Origin: a bacterium
GTDB lineage: Bacteria; UBP6; UBA1177
Assembly: GCA_017538365.1 (NCBI GenBank)
Contig: JAFYIZ010000005.1
Location: 1-52,608 of the forward strand
DNA: 52,608 nucleotides
Reading direction: 5' to 3'
The translations under genes and the position numbers were made by a program. Under the pieces are notes generated by a model. The model ran no database searches, was not told the DNA's origin, and was given only the letters and a program-made list of their open reading frames with translations. Shown piece after piece: positions 2,662 through 49,584 of the stretch (position 1 is the first letter of the stretch; each line of letters begins with the position of its first letter).

Positions 2662-2690
2662 TCGGTGCTTTTTTTTGAGAAGGGTTGAAA

Positions 2691-3455
2691 TTGTTGCAAT
2701 TTTTTTACAAGTTGGGACGCAGTTTAAGTGATTTTATGCGCTTCCTGGGTGATTGCTGCCGCTGGCTTTTCGTGCCGCCGTACAGGATCGGCCAGATTGC
2801 GGAACACATCGAAAGGATCGGAATCCAGTCTATTCCGATAGTTGCGCTTTCGGTTTTTACTACGGGTATGATTCTGGCGCTCCAGCTTATCAACATCATG
2901 TATATTTTCCGTGCCGAAACTTTTGCGGGAGCGGCTGTTGCGATTGCGATGAGCAGGGAATTGGCGCCTGTCGTCACCGCTATTGTGCTGATTGCTAAAA
3001 ACGGTTCGGCGATGACGGCTGAGATCGGAAGCATGCAGGTCACCGAACAGATCGCGGCGATGGAAACTATGGCTGTAAGTCCTCTGCGCTATCTTGTCGT
3101 GCCGCGCATTTTTGCTTCGATTTTAGCTTTTCCGGCTCTTACGGCTGTTGCGAATGCGGTCGGAGTCTACGGCGGATACTTTGTTGCGGCGCACGTTATG
3201 AACGTAAACAGCGTAGCCTACTTGAGCACGATGTATTTTTACGTTGATCCGGACGACATCTGGACCGGGCTCATCAAAGCGGCTGTTTTCGGCTTCATCG
3301 TCACGGTTATATGCTGCTATCAGGGTTTGCAGACAAGCGGCGGAGCGAAAGGTGTCGGCAGAAGAACCACGGCGGCGGTCGTCATTTCAACGGTCGCAAT
3401 TCTTGTCGCCGACTATGTAATGACTTTTTTGTTTATCAGATTTTTGGGAATGTAA
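2691..3455 (+). CDS. mlaE: MlaE-type lipid ABC transporter permease
   Basis: Inner-membrane permease of the Mla/MCE phospholipid transport system, which works with the MlaF ATPase and MlaD. The protein is about 254 residues, hydrophobic, with several membrane segments. It carries the MlaE family stretches around MSRELAPVVTAIVLIAKNGSAMTAEIGSM and the following region that turns at the periplasmic face. No ATG is present; three TTG codons at 2685, 2691 and 2694 are possible. GAGAAGGG ends at 2684, so 2691 or 2694 gives workable spacing and I use 2691. The stop overlaps the mlaF start as TAATG. Confidence 0.92.
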   Translation: MLQFFYKLGRSLSDFMRFLGDCCRWLFVPPYRIGQIAEHIERIGIQSIPIVALSVFTTGMILALQLINIMYIFRAETFAGAAVAIAMSRELAPVVTAIVLIAKNGSAMTAEIGSMQVTEQIAAMETMAVSPLRYLVVPRIFASILAFPALTAVANAVGVYGGYFVAAHVMNVNSVAYLSTMYFYVDPDDIWTGLIKAAVFGFIVTVICCYQGLQTSGGAKGVGRRTTAAVVISTVAILVADYVMTFLFIRFLGM

Positions 3456-4219
3456 TGGAAAACGCTATCGTCAGGGTCCGCAGCCTTTACAAGTCTTTCG
3501 ATGAGCACAAAATTCTGAACGGAGTCGATCTCGACATCGAGGAAGGGCGCATCACTGCGGTTATCGGCAAGAGCGGAACGGGAAAAAGCGTCCTCCTGAA
3601 GAATATCATCGGCATTCTGAAACCCGATAAAGGTGAGATTTTTTTCCGCGATTCCGATATCGCTAAAATGAATAAGGAAGAACTTCTGGAAATTAGAAAA
3701 AATATAGGTTATCTTTTCCAGGATGCGGCGCTTTTTGATTTTATGTCGGTTGAGGATAATATAAAGTTTCCTCTTGTCGAGCAGCTCGGGCTGAAAAACG
3801 GCAAAGAGCTTTCGGCCAGAGTCGCGGAACTGCTCGAACTTGTGGGGCTTCCGGGAACTGAGAAAAAGTTTCCGTCGGAGCTTTCGGGAGGCATGAGGAA
3901 AAGGGTCGGTCTGGCGCGTGCTATTGCGGTGAAGCCGAAAATCGTCCTTTTTGACGAACCGACGACCGGGCTTGACCCGATTTTGGCGGAAAGTATTGAC
4001 GCGCTTATTGATATGGTAAACAAGGAACTGAATATGACCTGTGTAGTTATAAGTCACGATATAGCTTCGGTTTTCAGGCATGCCGACAAGATTGCGCTGC
4101 TTTATGACGGCGTGATCCAGTTCTGCGGAACGCCGGACGAGGCGCTTGCTTCTACTCATGAAGTTATGCAGCGTTTTATTTCCAATTCATTCAGGGGAAT
4201 CGGTGCGGAGAGGAGATGA
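3455..4219 (+). CDS. mlaF: MlaF-type lipid ABC transporter ATPase
   Basis: Cytoplasmic ATPase that powers the MlaE permease. All ABC motifs are intact in 254 residues: Walker A GKSGTGKS (38-45), Q-loop LFQD (Q89), signature LSGGMRKR (143-150), Walker B IVLFDEPTTGLD (163-174) and a switch His in SHDIAS. I start at the ATG that overlaps the mlaE stop; the open frame extends further upstream but only inside mlaE. The 3' end overlaps mlaD by four bases (ATGA), so mlaEFD is a tightly coupled unit. Confidence 0.95.
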   Translation: MENAIVRVRSLYKSFDEHKILNGVDLDIEEGRITAVIGKSGTGKSVLLKNIIGILKPDKGEIFFRDSDIAKMNKEELLEIRKNIGYLFQDAALFDFMSVEDNIKFPLVEQLGLKNGKELSARVAELLELVGLPGTEKKFPSELSGGMRKRVGLARAIAVKPKIVLFDEPTTGLDPILAESIDALIDMVNKELNMTCVVISHDIASVFRHADKIALLYDGVIQFCGTPDEALASTHEVMQRFISNSFRGIGAERR

Positions 4220-5715
4220 CGAGAGCAGTTAAGATAGTGATATTTTTCGTTTTGTGTTCGTGCTGCGCCGGGATCTACATCTATAAATCGGCCGATTTCT
4301 TTGAAGGCGACACAAAAACATATTTTGCGTTGGCCGACGATGCAATGGGGCTTCTGCGTGACAGCAACATTCTTGTTTCAGGTGTCGTTGTCGGAAAACT
4401 CGACAAGATCGGTCTTGAGAACGGAAAAGCCAAGTTTACACTCAAAATCTCCAAAGAATTAGTTGTTTACGAAAATGCAAAACTTGAAAAAGTGATGGAA
4501 AGCATGCTCGGAACTTATGTCCTTGTGCTTGAACCGGGCGACAGTACGGCTTCCGTGCTTAATGAAAATGACTACATAAAAAATGTGAAGACCGATTCAG
4601 GAATGTCTGCCGCGATGAACAAAGCCACGGATATCATGGAAAAAACCGACGCCCTGATGGAAAAGGTCATGGAGCGCGAAAATAAGGAGAAAATCGATAA
4701 AATCATCGATATGCTCGTCAGAATGACAGAAAACACGACGCAGAATATCGAAGGAAACATGAAGATGCTTTCATCGGTTCTCAAGGATATGTCGGATGTC
4801 ATGCAGAAGGTGAATGCCAAAAGTGACACCGAAATGGAAAAACTGTCGAAAATATTGGAAAATACGCTCAAAGTTACCGACAGGATCGCCGAAATTTCAG
4901 ACGGTAAGGACGAGAAACTGAATCAGACTCTTGATGATCTCAGAAACAGCCTGAAACTTATCGCTGACGAGCTTGCCGCATCCCGCGGAGCAATGCAGGA
5001 TGTGCGTGAAATCACTTCGAATATGAACCAGATCACTGAAAAAGTGGCGAACGGCGAAGGAACGGTCGGTAAACTTATGACAGACGACAAACTTTATCAG
5101 GATATCGTCAAAGTTTCAGACAAGCTCACCGATTACGCCGATACGCTGCTCGGAATGAAGGTCTACGTTGACGCGCACTCGAACTACATGGTCTTCAACA
5201 ATGCCTTTAAGACTTATTTCGATATCACGCTTCAGCCGCGCAAAGACCGCTTTTATCTGCTCGGTGTCGTCGATGATCCGCGCGGCAATGTTTCGCATAC
5301 AGTGACGACCCATACGACTGATGTCGACGGCACGACATACATCGTAGAAGACGACAAAACTGTTGTTACAGACAAGCTGAAATTTAATTTGCAGATAGGT
5401 CGAATTTTCGGGCCGGTCGCACTTCGCGGCGGTATTTTCCAGAACAAGGCTGGCTTTGGAATTGACTACAATCCGTGGAAATACGTTTCGCTTTCAGCCG
5501 AGATCTTCGATTTCGGAAGCGGCGGTGCGCCTCAGCTGCGGGTTCAGGGTCTGGCCCGTCCGCTGCTTTGGACGATGGAGCCTTTCAGCTGGCTTTACAT
5601 TACGGCTGGCGGCGAAGATCTCATTAACGGAGAGCGCGATCTTTACTTCGGTCTGGGACTCAGATTCGACGACGACGATCTCAAAAGCATAGTTTCCACA
5701 GTTCCAAAACCATAA
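4216..5715 (+). CDS. mlaD: MCE-domain (MlaD-like) protein with long coiled coil and C-terminal beta-rich domain
   Basis: Periplasmic, membrane-anchored lipid-binding component of the Mla system. The layout of the 499 residues is: membrane anchor (about 5-24), one MCE domain (about 35-125, including ILVSGVVVGKLDKIGLENGK), a helical coiled coil rich in Lys, Glu, Met and Asp (about 130-300), then a C-terminal part of about 190 residues dominated by alternating beta patterns (for example KFNLQIGRIFGPVALRGGIF and LYFGLGLRF). The last part looks like an outer-membrane-facing beta domain. That is longer than E. coli MlaD (about 183 residues). The fusion suggests one protein may span from inner to outer membrane; this is inference. 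It is coupled to mlaF by an ATGA overlap and followed 12 bases later by the radical SAM gene. Confidence 0.88.
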   Translation: MTRAVKIVIFFVLCSCCAGIYIYKSADFFEGDTKTYFALADDAMGLLRDSNILVSGVVVGKLDKIGLENGKAKFTLKISKELVVYENAKLEKVMESMLGTYVLVLEPGDSTASVLNENDYIKNVKTDSGMSAAMNKATDIMEKTDALMEKVMERENKEKIDKIIDMLVRMTENTTQNIEGNMKMLSSVLKDMSDVMQKVNAKSDTEMEKLSKILENTLKVTDRIAEISDGKDEKLNQTLDDLRNSLKLIADELAASRGAMQDVREITSNMNQITEKVANGEGTVGKLMTDDKLYQDIVKVSDKLTDYADTLLGMKVYVDAHSNYMVFNNAFKTYFDITLQPRKDRFYLLGVVDDPRGNVSHTVTTHTTDVDGTTYIVEDDKTVVTDKLKFNLQIGRIFGPVALRGGIFQNKAGFGIDYNPWKYVSLSAEIFDFGSGGAPQLRVQGLARPLLWTMEPFSWLYITAGGEDLINGERDLYFGLGLRFDDDDLKSIVSTVPKP

Positions 5716-5727
5716 AATCGGTGAAAA

Positions 5728-6819
5728 ATGCGTCCTGAAATAAGAAAAATAGTTATAGATCCTGAGTTCGGAAACGCGGAACTTCCGCACAGAATCGCTG
5801 AAAAACTCTCGCTCAAGCCCGAATTTATGACGAAAGAGGAACTTTTGGATGAAATCAGGCAGAATTCCGGCGTTGATCTTTTCAAAACCGCGAAAAAAGT
5901 GCTTTTTTTCACTGAAAACAAAGGGCGTTTCCTCAAAAAATGCCCCGGTAGCAAAGGAGTTGTCTGCTGCAACTACTACACGATAAACAGCGTCACAGGA
6001 TGTCCTTACGACTGCTCCTACTGTATTCTGCAGCACTACATCGGCAACAATCCGTTTATTACTGTTTTTATGAATAGAAAAAAGGCGATAGAAGAAATCG
6101 TTTCGTTCCTTGCCGAAAACCGGTTTCTCCGCGTAGGAACAGGGGAACTGGCAGATTCGCTGGCGTTAGATTACCTGCTTGACGAGAGCGGATTTTTTAT
6201 CGGAGAACTCTCAAAACGATCACTTTTTGAGAGAGTCCAGTTCGAGTTTAAAACCAAATCTGCCGAAGTGGAACGCCTGCTTGAAGTGAAAGATCTCTAT
6301 CCGGATTCAAATATTGTCGCGGGATTTTCGGTGAATATTCCCCGTTTCAGCTCTTGCGAAGAGCCGGGAACGGCAACGCTTGAAGAGAGAATGAACGCGG
6401 CTGCACAGCTTCAGGCGAAGGGAGTCAAAGTCGCGATACATTTTGATCCGGTGCTTATGCTGGAAGAACTTTTCGACGACTATATGCAGCTCATAGATTC
6501 CATTTTTTCGCGTCTCGATCCAGAAAAAATCGCGTGGATCAGCATGGGCGGTTTCCGTCACACGCTTGCTTTAACCGAAACGATTATCGAGCGCAACCCG
6601 AAAAGCCTGCTTCTGCGCGGCGAAATGTTTCCTTCTGACAGTGACAACAAACTTCGCTATCTGGCGTTTGTCCGCCGCAGATTCTATACAGCCTTTAACG
6701 AGCGGATATCACGCTTTTTCAAAGGCAATCCACCGCTTTATATGTGTATGGAAAAGGCTTTCATGTGGTCTGATATGAAAATGCCGCTTCCTGAAGAAGT
6801 ATTCCGCAACAACAAATAA
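5728..6819 (+). CDS. spore photoproduct lyase-like radical SAM protein
   Basis: 363-residue radical SAM enzyme of the SPL family. The cluster-binding motif is GCPYDCSYCILQ, giving Cys92, Cys96 and Cys99 in the SPL-type CxxxCxxC spacing. Compared with B. subtilis SPL (from memory), Tyr97 is kept (Tyr98 here) but Tyr99 is Ile100. The stretch holding the catalytic hydrogen-donor Cys141 (ASCTSD) is replaced by GTGELADS (137-144), with no Cys. Repair of spore photoproduct by the known mechanism is therefore doubtful, and nothing here suggests sporulation. The substrate is unknown. It starts 12 bases after mlaD and is probably in the same transcript. The ribosome site is weak (GGTGAAAA). Confidence 0.82.
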   Translation: MRPEIRKIVIDPEFGNAELPHRIAEKLSLKPEFMTKEELLDEIRQNSGVDLFKTAKKVLFFTENKGRFLKKCPGSKGVVCCNYYTINSVTGCPYDCSYCILQHYIGNNPFITVFMNRKKAIEEIVSFLAENRFLRVGTGELADSLALDYLLDESGFFIGELSKRSLFERVQFEFKTKSAEVERLLEVKDLYPDSNIVAGFSVNIPRFSSCEEPGTATLEERMNAAAQLQAKGVKVAIHFDPVLMLEELFDDYMQLIDSIFSRLDPEKIAWISMGGFRHTLALTETIIERNPKSLLLRGEMFPSDSDNKLRYLAFVRRRFYTAFNERISRFFKGNPPLYMCMEKAFMWSDMKMPLPEEVFRNNK

Positions 6820-6937: not shown

Positions 6938-9349
6938 TTAGAGGCAGGTTCCTAATTTCGAACCTTCCTCATTAGGAGTTTCGATGTAGGCTTTGTATGT
7001 TTCTGCATTCCAAATAGGAATAAGAACTGCATCGGAGTTGTCATAAGAGCATACAGGATGGTTTACAGGATCTATCTCGATGCCCTGATCTTCCATTTTT
7101 ACGTCCGTAACGATTGCGTTGCCAGGATAAGACTTGTTGCTTTCAGGAGACGGCAGAGAGTTGTCCCATTTAACAACGGCGATGACTTTCCATTCATTGA
7201 CATTGATTTTGAAATCTGTCGCAGAATAGTTGTCAGCCGGACGTTTGCCGTCGGAACTTGCTTTTCTCGGAGCTTCGTCACCGTCAACAAGAATTTCGAC
7301 TCTGGCGTCAACTGTATAAGCTTTGTCTTCTCCGGTGTAAGTGGAATCGCAGCGGTCTCCTGCACCATCACTGTAATTTGAAACACATGATACGTAGCCG
7401 ATGACAAGAAGATATTCATCGTCAATAACCGGAACATCGGGAACGCCGTCGCCGTTAGCATCAGTAATCGGACCCAAACCTATGGTTTCAGGTGTTTCGT
7501 AGTTGTTGCCGCCCCAAGTATTATCGATATCGAGAGAAGCATGCCATTGGATCGTTAAACCTTCATCAACACCGTCAAGACCGTTATCACCGAACGAACA
7601 GTCGTCATGGCGCCAATAAGCTTCGCATTCATCTTTGTTTGTAGATGGATCTATAGTGCCCAACGCGCAATCAACATTTCTTGCTTTTGTTCCGAGTAAT
7701 CCTTCTGTCGGCGTGAAATTATATGATCCTGCTTCAAGACTGCTCTTTTTGATCATGTGAATATCGACGTCGACGATTGTACCTTCTTTGGATTCCGATT
7801 CTGCTTTTGTTCTGAATCCCTGTTTATAGGAAAGCTGTGCAACTACACGAGCCTGCGGGATGATTTTCGGAACGACTGTTATGTCGGCCGTGTCACTGAC
7901 AAGGTCAGTTTCTTTATCAACGGTTTCAGCCTGAATGCTGATTTTGTAATATTTTGTACGTTGCTCTTCGCAGTATTTCTGGCGGCAGATAAGGTAATCT
8001 GAAAGTTTGAGGAAAAGGAACTCATCAGGATTGTTTTTGTCATATACCGGTTCGTTTCCGCATTCAGAAGCACATTTTGCAGCATCAAAATCTTTATTCT
8101 TGTTTTCTTCGCCGGGATATCTTCTCGGAGTGATCATCAAACCTGTGAAAGAAGCTCTTTTCGGGTTGCCTCTCTTTCCGTCGTCAGGAAGCCACTGACC
8201 AGCTGCAGCATCCATTTCTGAAAGTTTGAGTTTCGAATCATCAAGAAGAGGAGTCGGAGACTCTTTCATTTCCCATTTATATTTGATGTAGTATCTTTCT
8301 TCCCAGTTTGCAAGACATTTGTCAGGATGATCAGGATCGGAAACGCAGGTTTTTGAAAGATCCATATCAACTTTATCATAAATGTTTCTGTATGACATCG
8401 GCTCAGTGATAGGAGTTCTGAAGGCAACATGGATTATCGGTTTTGGCGGTTTGTTGGGCTGCCTTGTAATCTGGATACGATAGCTTGTCGAGCTTTCGCC
8501 GCAAGTATCGGTTTTGCCTTTCGTCGGATCGTTTGTGCAGATTTCGATAGAGAAATCGCCGTTAAGTCTGTAACCTTCGATAGGATTGTCCTTGAGGTAG
8601 GTTGCTGCAGCCTTGTCATAGCTGATGCGGATTTTGAATTTTGAGTTGTATTTTTTCGGGTCGAAACCTTTTTTGCAGACTTTGTCAGCGGAGTCGAGCT
8701 GAAGCGGGCAGAGTGAAGCGATTGAATCATCTTTGTTTTCGCCCAAATAGTCGAAAGTAAGTCCTTTTGCGTTGTATCCTTCAGCTGCAATGCCGTTTTC
8801 CATCTTCTGAACTTCGAGCTGGAAAAGTTTTTTGTAGTTCGGATCGCCAAGGTTTGCTATGAGTTCACCGTTCGGATCAATCATGTTGATTTTTCTGATT
8901 TTGAGTTCGCCGGTAACACCGCGGTTGTAGATTTCGAACTCTTTGGTGATTACGTCAGCAACTTCCGCTCTTACGGTTTTTACATAAACAGGAGCATCTT
9001 CTTCTATAACAGCTCCCGGTTCTCCGTCAACATCTTCATCTGATTCAGCATCATCTTCATCCGGGGTTGTTGGATCAATGTCTTCGTCAGGTTCGACATC
9101 TTCATCTGTTTCGGTCGGTTCTGTTGTCGGTTCGTCGGTCGGCTCGGTCGTCGGCTCTTCGGTCGGCTCTTCGGTTGGTTCCGCAGTCGGTTCGGTTGTG
9201 TTGTTTCCGTCATCCCACGGATAGTAAGCGAAGACCATTTTCGCCGGGTTCGACGCAATTTCGGGTTTTCCTTCAACATCGTAGCTGTTGCATGAAACGA
9301 AAGCTGAAATTCCGAGCAACAACAGTGTAACTACCAGTAATCTCTTCAT
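6938..9349 (-). CDS. large stalked lipoprotein, function unknown
   Basis: 803-residue predicted lipoprotein. The start at the ATG 9347-9349 is chosen because GGAGG lies about 10 bases upstream and gives the signal MKRLLVVTLLLLGISAFVSC with a lipobox Cys at 20. A Thr/Pro/Glu stalk of TEPT repeats and an Asp/Glu stretch follow (about 48-120). The remainder is a beta-rich, presumably periplasmic or surface portion with many Cys in the last third (CALGTIDPSTNKDECEAYW, CSFGDNGLDG), suggesting disulfide bonds. It contains Asp-rich DANGDGVPDVPVIDDE, which resembles a calcium-binding type-3 or dockerin-like loop. I do not recognise the family. It is monocistronic, with its own promoter and terminator. 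Confidence 0.85.
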   Translation of the reverse strand: MKRLLVVTLLLLGISAFVSCNSYDVEGKPEIASNPAKMVFAYYPWDDGNNTTEPTAEPTEEPTEEPTTEPTDEPTTEPTETDEDVEPDEDIDPTTPDEDDAESDEDVDGEPGAVIEEDAPVYVKTVRAEVADVITKEFEIYNRGVTGELKIRKINMIDPNGELIANLGDPNYKKLFQLEVQKMENGIAAEGYNAKGLTFDYLGENKDDSIASLCPLQLDSADKVCKKGFDPKKYNSKFKIRISYDKAAATYLKDNPIEGYRLNGDFSIEICTNDPTKGKTDTCGESSTSYRIQITRQPNKPPKPIIHVAFRTPITEPMSYRNIYDKVDMDLSKTCVSDPDHPDKCLANWEERYYIKYKWEMKESPTPLLDDSKLKLSEMDAAAGQWLPDDGKRGNPKRASFTGLMITPRRYPGEENKNKDFDAAKCASECGNEPVYDKNNPDEFLFLKLSDYLICRQKYCEEQRTKYYKISIQAETVDKETDLVSDTADITVVPKIIPQARVVAQLSYKQGFRTKAESESKEGTIVDVDIHMIKKSSLEAGSYNFTPTEGLLGTKARNVDCALGTIDPSTNKDECEAYWRHDDCSFGDNGLDGVDEGLTIQWHASLDIDNTWGGNNYETPETIGLGPITDANGDGVPDVPVIDDEYLLVIGYVSCVSNYSDGAGDRCDSTYTGEDKAYTVDARVEILVDGDEAPRKASSDGKRPADNYSATDFKINVNEWKVIAVVKWDNSLPSPESNKSYPGNAIVTDVKMEDQGIEIDPVNHPVCSYDNSDAVLIPIWNAETYKAYIETPNEEGSKLGTCL
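9109..9204 (-). repeat. 12-bp coding tandem repeat (TEPT stalk)
   Basis: Degenerate 12-base repeat within the 6938-9349 gene, about seven units, each coding a four-residue T-E-P-T type block (EPTAEPTEEPTEEPTTEPT). It is the same repeat logic as in the unrelated lipoprotein at 37585. Confidence 0.8.
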
Positions 9350-9403
9350 TTTTTCTGAACCTCCAATAAATATTCCAAGAATCACATAGCCAAACTTCGC
9401 GTA

Positions 9404-9492: not shown

Positions 9493-10875
9493 TCATTCTG
9501 AAAATTCTTTTACGCATCTGACTGAATATCCGTCGGCGCGTCCTCCGGTTGCTTTCGGTGATGCTGAAACCTGATCTTCGTACTGAAAGGCGAGAGCATA
9601 AGCTCCGCACGGAACGGAAGAATCCTCCGACTCATCGGCATCGGCATACCAGTAGTTTCCCCAGAGTCCGGTTTTACTTCCCATAAGCATAGCATAAGAG
9701 CCGTCGTAACGCGCTGCGGCAGGAAAATAGGAGTAAGAATCCGACGCTTTATCAAGCAGGATATACCAGCCGTTTTTGTAGTCATTTCCGTCAATTACAC
9801 CGTCATGATCGATGTCGTAAACGGAAAATCCGGATATATCTGTTTCATATCCGCCGCTTGAAGTGAAAAAGTCAAAAGTTCCTGCTTTAGGTACTCTGTA
9901 TCCAATCGGACACGGGTCGAAAAGGCTCTTTTCACCGTCGGAGCCGCCCCAGAGCGCAGGATTCGAGAACTCTTTGCGCAGCCAGTCGCGGCACTCCGCA
10001 AACTGTGATTTGTTGCTCAAAACCGTTGTCGGGTTGGAAACAGCATATTCAAGCGTGTTGCTATCGGTATTTTCCCACGACGAATGAGCGATTTCGACTT
10101 CATTCCCTTCCGCATCGTAAACAGGAACAGGCATGGTCGAAGTCGTCCCTCCTGAAACAACTGGAGAAGCCGGAAACGGATCTTTCCTTCCCCACTGGTA
10201 GAGCAATCCGTGACTTGCCGGTGAGTCAAAATCCAGTGACGTCGCGCCTAGATTTCTGTCCATCACCATAACGCCGTCTGCGGTTTTTACATCTGTTATA
10301 TCTTCGTCCGAAAGCCAGATGTGCCAGCTCCAGATGATGTTTCCTGCTTCATCAAGTGCCGCTACAATAGCGTTCCCACCTAAATTTTTTGCGGTAAAAT
10401 AAATTTTTCCATCTTCGAGTTGAAGTGAATCGATCAGACCGTTTTTATCACTCTGCCAGATGAGTTTTACATCCTTTGGATCAAGTTTTTTCTCAGTAAA
10501 ATCAATGCCTTCAACCGCTTTGCCATTGCCGCGCACGGTCGCATCAAAGCTGTATTCTCCCGCAGTTTTTACGATGTAGCAGTTTGCCGTTCCGGTCTCG
10601 GAAAGGTCGGTAACGTTTTCCGGTTCATCGTCAGACTCTACTGGCTCTTCATCAGTCTGAGTCTGGTCTTCGTCATCCTGTTCTGATAGAGTGCCTGTAT
10701 CATCAACATCTGCTGCGGAATCGCTGTCGTCTGTTGGATCCGTGCCGGTATCGACTACATCTTCATCGTTCTGCGGTTCGCCGGAATCGGTTTTGTCTTC
10801 ATTTTTTGAGCCGTTTCCGCATGAAACCGCGAAAAAAGCGCAGAAAAGTGCAAAAACAAGAAAGGATTTTTTCAT
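9493..10875 (-). CDS. FISUMP-domain lipoprotein
   Basis: 460-residue predicted lipoprotein. The signal ends AFFAVSC (lipobox Cys19), followed by an acidic Asp/Glu/Thr/Ser spacer of about 75 residues. The C-terminal half has the Fibrobacter succinogenes major paralogous (FISUMP) domain signature: VMVMDRNLGATS, LLYQWGRKDPFPAS, FDPCPIGYRVPKAGTFDFF and the closing GYSVRCVKE. An Asp-rich YDIDHDGVIDGNDY loop resembles a calcium-binding loop. FISUMP proteins are surface-exposed and their role is not known. It is the last gene of the DUF1538/PII/LRR run, 8 bases after the LRR gene, with no strong ribosome site of its own. Confidence 0.87.
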   Translation of the reverse strand: MKKSFLVFALFCAFFAVSCGNGSKNEDKTDSGEPQNDEDVVDTGTDPTDDSDSAADVDDTGTLSEQDDEDQTQTDEEPVESDDEPENVTDLSETGTANCYIVKTAGEYSFDATVRGNGKAVEGIDFTEKKLDPKDVKLIWQSDKNGLIDSLQLEDGKIYFTAKNLGGNAIVAALDEAGNIIWSWHIWLSDEDITDVKTADGVMVMDRNLGATSLDFDSPASHGLLYQWGRKDPFPASPVVSGGTTSTMPVPVYDAEGNEVEIAHSSWENTDSNTLEYAVSNPTTVLSNKSQFAECRDWLRKEFSNPALWGGSDGEKSLFDPCPIGYRVPKAGTFDFFTSSGGYETDISGFSVYDIDHDGVIDGNDYKNGWYILLDKASDSYSYFPAAARYDGSYAMLMGSKTGLWGNYWYADADESEDSSVPCGAYALAFQYEDQVSASPKATGGRADGYSVRCVKEFSE

Positions 10876-49393: not shown

Positions 49394-49424
49394 TCGGCGT
49401 TTCGTGTTTTTTGATGTTCGTCTT

Positions 49425-49512
49425 TTGCAGGGGAGCGTGCTGAAGCAGGCTGAGAGGAAGTTAGGCTTTGACCCTTTGACCTGATGCGGGTAATGCCGCC
49501 GTAGGGAGTCTT
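49425..49512 (+). promoter_or_regulatory. TPP riboswitch (THI element)
   Basis: The conserved core is readable: GGGGAGC, GCTGAGAGGA, ACCCTTTGACCTGAT, GCGGGTAATGCCGC and GTAGGGA, in the right order and spacing. It binds thiamine pyrophosphate and lowers expression of the genes behind it, thiD and cytX. About 135 bases separate it from the thiD start. Confidence 0.95.
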
Positions 49513-49584
49513 TTGGAAAATCTTGTCAGTTTGTCAGCCGTTTTCATTGCAAAAATATAGATGTTTTTTGAAAGTTTTGGTTAT

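What the first reader, a model, noticed from the sequence alone, without database searches (positions are those of the whole stretch)
5728..6819. SPL-like radical SAM enzyme without the hydrogen-donor Cys, in an Mla operon
The radical SAM motif is intact (Cys92, 96, 99), but the position of B. subtilis Cys141 lies in GTGELADS and the second radical-relay Tyr is Ile100. The host shows no sign of sporulation. The gene is 12 bases behind mlaD, hinting at an envelope or lipid substrate, or at a DNA substrate with another mechanism.
Basis: partly seen in the sequence, partly recalled or inferred. Interest (0 to 1): 0.57.

Follow-up and report, generated by a model that had tools for sequence, protein, structure and literature searches.

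The report
Spore-lesion-repair cousin with ParB-like partner
A rumen-type bacterium that shows no sign of making spores carries a distant cousin of the enzyme that mends UV damage in spore DNA; its relatives in many bacterial groups often come with a second, DNA-clamp-like (ParB) protein, so it probably works on DNA rather than on membranes, and it seems to keep a key cysteine in the place used by another branch of the spore enzyme.

Summary
ORF 5728-6819 is real: a 363-aa SPL-fold radical SAM protein, 12 bases behind mlaD, in a relative of UBP6 rumen bacteria without Spo0A. The sequence reading is right: the Bs Cys141 column is Glu140 and Tyr99 is Ile100. (1) It is not simply donor-less: the 30 best-scoring SPLs of 199 Bacillota genomes also lack Cys141 and carry a Cys at another place (the C. 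acetobutylicum C74 type in print); Bacilli SPLs have it the other way round. That column is Cys72 here, Cys in 96-97 of 103 distinct family rows. (2) The mla link is genus-level (12 of 14 congeners, none of 12 other relatives with upstream sequence). The wider link is to a ParB-like protein: outside the window's phylum 56 of 58 genomes with the partner also have the SPL-like gene, within 1 kb in 37, always partner first. The window genome keeps the partner's C-terminal part on another contig. So the substrate is most likely DNA. The active site is remodelled (Glu140, Asp240, Gly274; co-varying cysteines 72, 80 or 74/75, 81, 340), so the lesion is probably not the spore photoproduct. Best reading: a two-protein radical-SAM DNA-repair module, a new variant of a known kind; no biochemistry found.

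The parts
5728..6819 (+). SPL-like radical SAM protein, 363 aa (P0001), GE-type (GTGELADS)
   Evidence: PF20903 71.7 bits; SPL structures Z 32.5-32.7 over 322-325 residues
5941..5943 (+). codon of Cys72 (KKCPGS), in the column of the alternative SPL donor Cys and of Gt SPL S76; candidate hydrogen donor and/or metal ligand
   Evidence: hhalign puts it two residues away
5965..5970 (+). codons of Cys80-Cys81, common in the family, not seen in SPL proper; candidate metal ligands with C72 and C340
6001..6024 (+). CX3CX2C radical SAM motif, Cys92-Cys96-Cys99, with Y98 kept
6025..6027 (+). codon of Ile100, in place of the second relay Tyr (Bs Y99)
6136..6159 (+). GTGELADS (137-144); Glu140 stands where Bs SPL has Cys141
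6445..6447 (+). codon of Asp240 (HFDP), Asp in 100 of 100 distinct GE..D rows, Ala or Gly in SPL proper
6745..6747 (+). codon of Cys340 (MCME), Cys in 97 of 100 distinct GE..D rows
2685..3455 (+). mlaE-like permease, first gene of the local run of genes; linked to the SPL-like gene only within this genus as far as tested
3455..4219 (+). mlaF-like ABC ATPase
4216..5715 (+). mlaD-like protein, 12 bases before the SPL-like gene

Best explanation
The gene encodes the catalytic half of a two-protein DNA direct-reversal repair module. Shown by computation: a full-length SPL fold with an intact radical SAM motif, and a recurrent partner gene whose full-length form is ParB-like (ParB N-domain, helix-turn-helix, own C-terminal domain). 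The substrate is probably not classical spore photoproduct but a related lesion, for instance another methylene-bridged thymine cross-link made by radicals without oxygen. In this genus the partner has no ParB domain and lies elsewhere, and the radical SAM gene came to lie behind mlaD, a local matter of position.
For: SPL structures match 322-325 residues at Z 32.5-32.7, rmsd 2.4-2.5; the next fold has Z 14.8. Partner: of 77 loci with a called SPL-like gene (81 examined, 10 of the 77 from the window's genus), 32 have a gene of the ParB-like family directly upstream; PF02195 is over its cut-off in 4 of 8 family proteins scanned, one more matches below it, three short or divergent ones do not match; the L053 partner model (pLDDT 93) matches PadC, ParB, KorB and Noc. 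Over the same 290 genomes the SPL-like profile hits 108, the partner C-terminal profile 85, both 80, neither 177; outside the window's phylum 56 both, 27 SPL-like only, 2 partner only, 177 neither; 37 of the 56 pairs within 1 kb, partner upstream 37 of 37, same strand 36 of 37. In the phylum of G079, where 95 of 199 genomes have an SPL hit, the partner profile finds 1 of 199, a weak match with five stops. The window genome keeps the partner C-terminal part: E 3.0e-26 with a profile that did not hold it. Cys72 column. K177 and R277 are kept in 100 of 100 distinct GE..D rows and in 30 of 30 Bacillota SPLs.
Against: No activity of any family member turned up in the paper listings. Co-occurrence is not corrected for relatedness, and the partner profile was made from neighbours of SPL-like genes, so a genome may carry a seed; 11 of the 58 out-of-phylum partner loci could be checked and none shares 90% identical DNA with a seed locus. 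Three SPL-like seeds come from out-of-phylum genomes of the set (G028, G032, G036). 27 out-of-phylum genomes have an SPL-like hit without the partner: 23 score under 300 bits, but G126, G137, G142 and G205 score 302-365. Most of the 77 loci (45) do not have the partner directly upstream by this caller. The partner could aim the enzyme at DNA for modification rather than repair. Three LexA-type consensus boxes gave 0 hits upstream, 0.14-0.60 expected. C72 co-varies with three other cysteines, which fits a metal site as well as a donor. hhalign places C72 two residues from S76.
Confidence: 0.55

Rival explanations
1. The four cysteines (72, 80 or 74/75, 81, 340) bind a metal, either a second iron-sulfur cluster or zinc, beside the active site. 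C72 is then a ligand and the enzyme works by a mechanism unlike SPL's (an electron relay or sulfur donation), still on DNA.
For: Among 103 distinct rows, where C80 is lost but C72 is kept an extra Cys at 74/75 appears in 13 of 14, against 1 of 83 that keep C72 and C80; 80 rows hold all four and 13 the swapped set. The 13 swapped rows are largely one phylum-level group (Aminicenantes by record title for most of those with a name), so they are not 13 independent events.
Against: Five rows keep only C80 and C340 and one row lacks all of them. The 30 Bacillota SPLs have a Cys in the C72 column, in 29 of 30 the only Cys in that loop, and print names it as the conserved Cys of C. acetobutylicum SPL (PMC5368176, passages). 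The spacing matches no auxiliary-cluster motif that I recall.
Confidence: 0.35
2. It is a true spore photoproduct lyase that serves vegetative cells.
For: Same fold, radical SAM motif, first Tyr, a Cys in the alternative donor column.
Against: 78.9 bits against the 400-bit cut-off of TIGR04070. Differences at columns 140 (Glu), 240 (Asp) and 274 (Gly) that hold in 100 of 100 distinct GE..D rows (column 140 was part of the choice of rows). A fully supported branch (100/100, length 2.57) parts the family from SPL proper. The named hosts near the window are mostly ruminant-gut MAGs, away from light.
Confidence: 0.15
3. It modifies DNA bases at sites chosen by the ParB-like partner (an epigenetic or protective mark) instead of repairing damage.
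For: A ParB-like partner with a helix-turn-helix fits site choice. DndB of the ParB superfamily accompanies DNA phosphorothioate modification (PMC10853773, passages).
Against: No PADLOC match at E 0.01 for the enzyme or for two partner forms. The pair occurs in 50 family labels outside the phylum (hand count), and I recognised no nuclease among the 25 commonest neighbour groups (by eye).
Confidence: 0.15
4. It acts on lipid or an envelope component together with Mla.
For: Same strand, 12 bases behind mlaD, kept in 12 of 14 congener loci.
Against: Two congeners have a phosphofructokinase-like gene upstream instead (name by eye). mlaD was not found in 14 of 14 loci outside the genus, two of which lack upstream sequence. 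The recurrent partner is ParB-like, and 14 of 15 genomes of the genus keep its C-terminal part.
Confidence: 0.06

Closest known systems
SPL of the alternative-donor type (30 best-scoring Bacillota SPLs; SPL(Ca) with C74 in print)
   Same: CX3CX2C; no Cys at the Bs C141 site; a Cys in the column of window C72; K177 and R277
   Different: Keeps both Tyr (30 of 30 at columns 98 and 100), Ala or Gly at column 240 and Ile at 274; one Cys in the loop in 29 of 30; no Cys at 340; partner profile finds 1 of 199 genomes of that phylum, a spurious match
Bacillus/Geobacillus SPL (4fhc and mutants)
   Same: Full-length fold, Z 32.6 for 4fhc
   Different: Donor C140/C141 and second Tyr; 20% identity in the structural alignment
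Spore photoproduct lyase family TIGR03886
   Same: SPL-like proteins annotated in, e.g., Deinococcus, Nostoc and Granulicella plasmids
   Different: Keeps the Cys at column 140 in the two rows examined; window scores 33.4 bits against a cut-off of 437.55
ParB, Noc, KorB, PadC (for the partner)
   Same: N-terminal ParB domain and helix-turn-helix region
   Different: Own C-terminal domain with RYP and FEG motifs; two forms scanned score below the cut-offs of the partition families; the window genome's copy lacks the ParB domain

Membership tests
Spore photoproduct lyase (TIGR04070) | curated score cut-off 400 bits | tested here: not met
   78.9 bits
Spore photoproduct lyase (TIGR04070) | SPL fold over the whole length | tested here: met
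   Z 32.5-32.7, 322-325 residues
Spore photoproduct lyase (TIGR04070) | CX3CX2C radical SAM motif | tested here: met
   C92, C96, C99
Spore photoproduct lyase (TIGR04070) | hydrogen-donor Cys at the Bacillus site (Bs C141) | tested here: not met
   Glu140
Spore photoproduct lyase (TIGR04070) | a Cys at the alternative donor site (Gt S76 column) | tested here: met
   C72 in four of four MAFFT modes; two residues off in hhalign. Presence of the Cys only; its role is not tested
Spore photoproduct lyase (TIGR04070) | second relay Tyr (Bs Y99) | tested here: not met
   I100
Spore photoproduct lyase (TIGR04070) | repair of spore photoproduct | not testable with these tools
   needs an enzyme assay
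Pfam SPL (PF20903) | gathering cut-off 27 bits | tested here: met
   71.7 bits
SPL family TIGR03886 | curated score cut-off 437.55 bits | tested here: not met
   33.4 bits
Mla system | link with mla genes kept beyond the genus | tested here: not met
   12 of 14 congener loci, 0 of 14 others, two of them without upstream sequence
ParB-like proteins (partner, full-length form) | ParB_N domain | tested here: met
   PF02195 over cut-off in 4 of 8 scanned, short forms included; PadC, ParB, KorB and Noc matches to the L053 model
ParB-like proteins (partner copy of the window genome) | ParB_N domain | tested here: not met
   170-aa ORF that aligns with the C-terminal domain only; no NCBIfam match at E 0.01

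The most novel reading that the evidence does not exclude
A widespread two-protein system in bacteria that do not sporulate: a ParB-like DNA clamp guides an SPL-fold radical SAM enzyme with a second, four-cysteine metal centre next to its active site, which directly reverses a cross-linked DNA lesion other than the spore photoproduct, probably one formed by radicals without oxygen.
Probability: 0.2. Interest if true: 0.85.

Novelty: new variant of a known kind. Interest (0 to 1): 0.6.

Why it matters
Direct reversal of DNA damage by a radical SAM enzyme is known, as far as I recall, only from spore photoproduct lyase. Here a sister family is common (108 of 290 sampled genomes hit the profile at E 1e-10 or better; 26 of the 108 are from the window's phylum and some others are other SPL branches), no function for it turned up in my paper searches, and it recurs with a ParB-like partner. 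The pair, the donor-site cysteine and the Glu140 and Asp240 that hold throughout the family turn a name ('SPL-like') into testable claims about a possible DNA-repair route in bacteria that do not sporulate.

Tried and rejected
Lipid or envelope role: judged unlikely on the genus-limited mla link and the ParB-like partner. Anti-phage defence: no PADLOC match at E 0.01 for the enzyme or two partner forms. Regulation by LexA: three consensus boxes, 0 hits near the operon starts; this excludes only those motifs. Natural fusion: two long proteins of one family label (L142, L147) carry a weak match to the partner C-terminal profile in front of the SPL part (E 0.0057 and 5.2e-6), and G226 shows both weakly in one 447-aa frame; suggestive only. 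The partner's last domain (residues 253-334 of L053) gave no strong fold match; it was not searched alone, so I claim no new fold. Sulfiredoxin-like and serine-kinase rows are weaker than the ParB rows and were not pursued. The sequence of C. acetobutylicum SPL was not obtained. In many of the 30 the Cys lies at residue 74-79 from some Met, in others no such Met exists.

Rows set aside: 20 near-identical congener loci (L001-L012, L030-L037) and five duplicate loci were dropped before the 118-row alignment; ten further rows proved to be the same gene in two collections and are removed in the 103-row counts; three rows without the GE..D pattern (L134, L143, L149) are outside the 100-row counts. 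Of 81 loci (80 plus the window) my simple gene caller found the SPL-like gene in 77; the other four are not counted.

Papers: PMC5368176, PMC3742179, PMC3765255, PMC8565304 and PMC10853773 were seen as passages; others only as search listings. The S76C rescue experiment is recalled; from calls I have only the mutant's title and sequence.

Mended on checking: the window genome's partner is now supported (profile without it) rather than (profile that held it); row counts were redone on distinct rows; the statement on Bacillota SPLs now covers only the 30. The odds did not change.

Full report
Observation. The ORF at 5728-6819 on the + strand encodes 363 residues with the radical SAM motif C92-C96-C99. 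Upstream on the same strand lie mlaE, an ABC ATPase and mlaD, the last ending 12 bases before the ORF. Pfam SPL is matched over its cut-off; the two NCBI SPL families are matched far below theirs. The nearest named records (88-92% identical) are mostly ruminant-gut MAGs, one of them titled UBP6. The window genome (97.6% complete by the tool's figure) shows one copy and no Spo0A match.

Fold. An AlphaFold model from 19 sequences has mean pLDDT 89.2. Its best matches are six entries of Geobacillus SPL, Z 32.5 to 32.7 over 322-325 residues including the N-terminal part; the next fold has Z 14.8. So this is an SPL-fold protein end to end, not just a radical SAM core.

The missing cysteine. In four MAFFT modes on 148 sequences the Geobacillus C140 column is window E140 and the Y98 column is I100. 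But SPL has two places for the donor. PMC5368176 (passages) says that the conserved Cys of Clostridium acetobutylicum SPL is C74, on the other side of the pocket from the Tyr. I searched 199 genomes of the phylum of G079: 95 have a TIGR04070 match at E 1e-30, 86 over the cut-off. I read the 30 best-scoring. All 30 have Ala or Ser at the C141 column and a Cys 14 residues before the first cluster Cys. Three SPLs of the Bacillus type (L133, L136 and Geobacillus) have Cys at the first place and Ser at the second. The second place is Gt S76, changed to Cys in the deposited C140A/S76C mutant. That column is window C72 in all four modes, and 96-97 of 103 distinct family rows have Cys there. Against this, hhalign on a smaller set puts C72 two residues away, and no distance could be measured.

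A remodelled site. In 100 distinct rows with the GE..D signature (chosen by columns 139, 140 and 143, so those columns are fixed by choice), D240, G274, R277, K177 and Y98 are each in 100 of 100, C72 in 96, C81 in 94, C80 in 86, C340 in 97. SPL proper has Ala or Gly at 240 and Ile at 274, in five rows and the 30, and no Cys at 340. Where C80 is lost and C72 kept, a new Cys at 74/75 appears in 13 of 14 distinct rows, against 1 of 83 that keep both; most of the 13 that bear a name are Aminicenantes, so these are few events. Such swapping is what metal ligands do, so a second metal site is a serious rival to a free donor thiol. A tree of 62 rows parts the family (45 rows, two of them of other patterns) from SPL proper by a branch of length 2.57 with full support.

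The partner. In 77 loci where my gene caller found the SPL-like gene (of 81), the gene directly upstream belongs to one family in 32, often overlapping or within tens of bases; in the other 45 it does not, among them the Nitrospinaceae loci. Eight family proteins were scanned: four pass the ParB_N cut-off, one matches below it, three short or divergent ones do not match. A full-length partner (L053) modelled at pLDDT 93.4 matches PadC, ParB, KorB and Noc in the N-terminal domain and the helix-turn-helix region; its C-terminal domain has RYP and FEG motifs. With a profile of that C-terminal domain alone (A4) and the SPL-like profile (A1) I searched the same 290 genomes. Both: 80; SPL-like only: 28; partner only: 5; neither: 177. 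Outside the window's phylum: 56, 27, 2 and 177. Relatedness is not corrected; the 56 fall in 50 family labels by my hand count. A4 was made from neighbours of SPL-like genes and from the window genome's copy; of the 11 out-of-phylum partner loci that were fetched, none shares 90% identical DNA with a seed locus, the others were not checked. One of the two partner-only genomes is a weak match with a stop inside. Of the 27 SPL-like-only genomes 23 score under 300 bits and four score 302-365. The two genes lie within 1 kb in 37 of the 56, the partner upstream in 37 of 37 and on the same strand in 36 of 37. In the phylum of G079, where true SPL is common, the partner profile finds 1 of 199 genomes, a weak match with five stops.

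The window's own genus. Fourteen of 15 genomes of the genus have the partner's C-terminal domain, in open frames of 172-234 aa, on another contig or tens to hundreds of kilobases away where both genes were found. In the window genome it was found with a profile that did not hold it at E 3.0e-26; it is a 170-aa ORF between a TPR-like protein and a cob(I)alamin adenosyltransferase-like protein (the neighbours' names are by eye). In a related genus (G016) and in another family of the order (G019) it is directly upstream of the SPL-like gene. The mla link is the narrower one: mlaD is upstream in 12 of 14 congener loci and in none of 14 other loci, two of which have no upstream sequence.

Mechanism. 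Shown: fold, motif, partner, columns. Inferred: DNA as substrate (about 0.75), repair rather than modification (about 0.6), C72 as the hydrogen donor (about 0.5), no SAM regeneration because the second Tyr is gone (from what PMC3742179, passages, says of Y99F in Bs SPL), a lesion other than spore photoproduct (about 0.7, from the changed residues). SplB-type proteins (COG1533) are named as SOS-regulated in PMC8565304 and linked with SOS components in PMC3765255 (passages), but these may be other branches; my own search for LexA-type boxes found none.

In print. I found no paper that joins an SPL-like protein with a ParB-like one: searches over the held library (one search lists one Clostridium genome paper that holds both words; not read); searches covered SPL itself. 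Most subscription papers are not in that library.

Verdict. A real and conserved protein of a large sister family of SPL for which I found no described function. The stronger finding is the ParB-like partner.

Noticed in passing
window 49419-49524 (+): TPP riboswitch, 61.6 bits against a gathering score of 54.3.
   Followed up: no
window 6938-9385 (-) and 9493-10875 (-): Two large secreted-looking proteins with long Asp/Glu/Thr/Pro-rich stretches (TEPTDEPTTEPTETDEDVEPDED...) after the SPL-like gene on the other strand; similar stretches recur near the partner gene in L130.
   Followed up: no
Bacillota SPL, L196-L225: The 30 best-scoring SPLs of that search have a Cys at the Gt S76 site and none at C141; L218 of this type branches with the C141-type group in the tree (96/80), which hints at a donor swap inside SPL.
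   Followed up: partly
L044, L045 and L046, between partner gene and SPL-like gene: In two UBP6-order relatives (L045, L046) an ATPase-like and an RloB-like gene (names by eye) lie between the partner C-terminal gene and the SPL-like gene; in L044 a gene that looks like a nuclease-fold protein does.
   Followed up: no
L134 (Fusobacterium vincentii record NZ_CP084075.1): An SPL-like domain inside a 624-aa open frame, with one Cys in the loop before the motif and one near column 140; a very long branch, so its place is unsure.
   Followed up: no
records MT835770.1 and MT835514.1: Two records named bacteriophage from human faeces encode weakly similar SPL-like proteins (24.6-25.7% identity to L139).
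   Followed up: no
Nitrospinaceae and related loci, e.g. L057, L060, L062: There the SPL-like gene is flanked by a dnaN-like gene and an M23-peptidase-like gene (names by eye) on the other strand, with no partner directly upstream.
   Followed up: no
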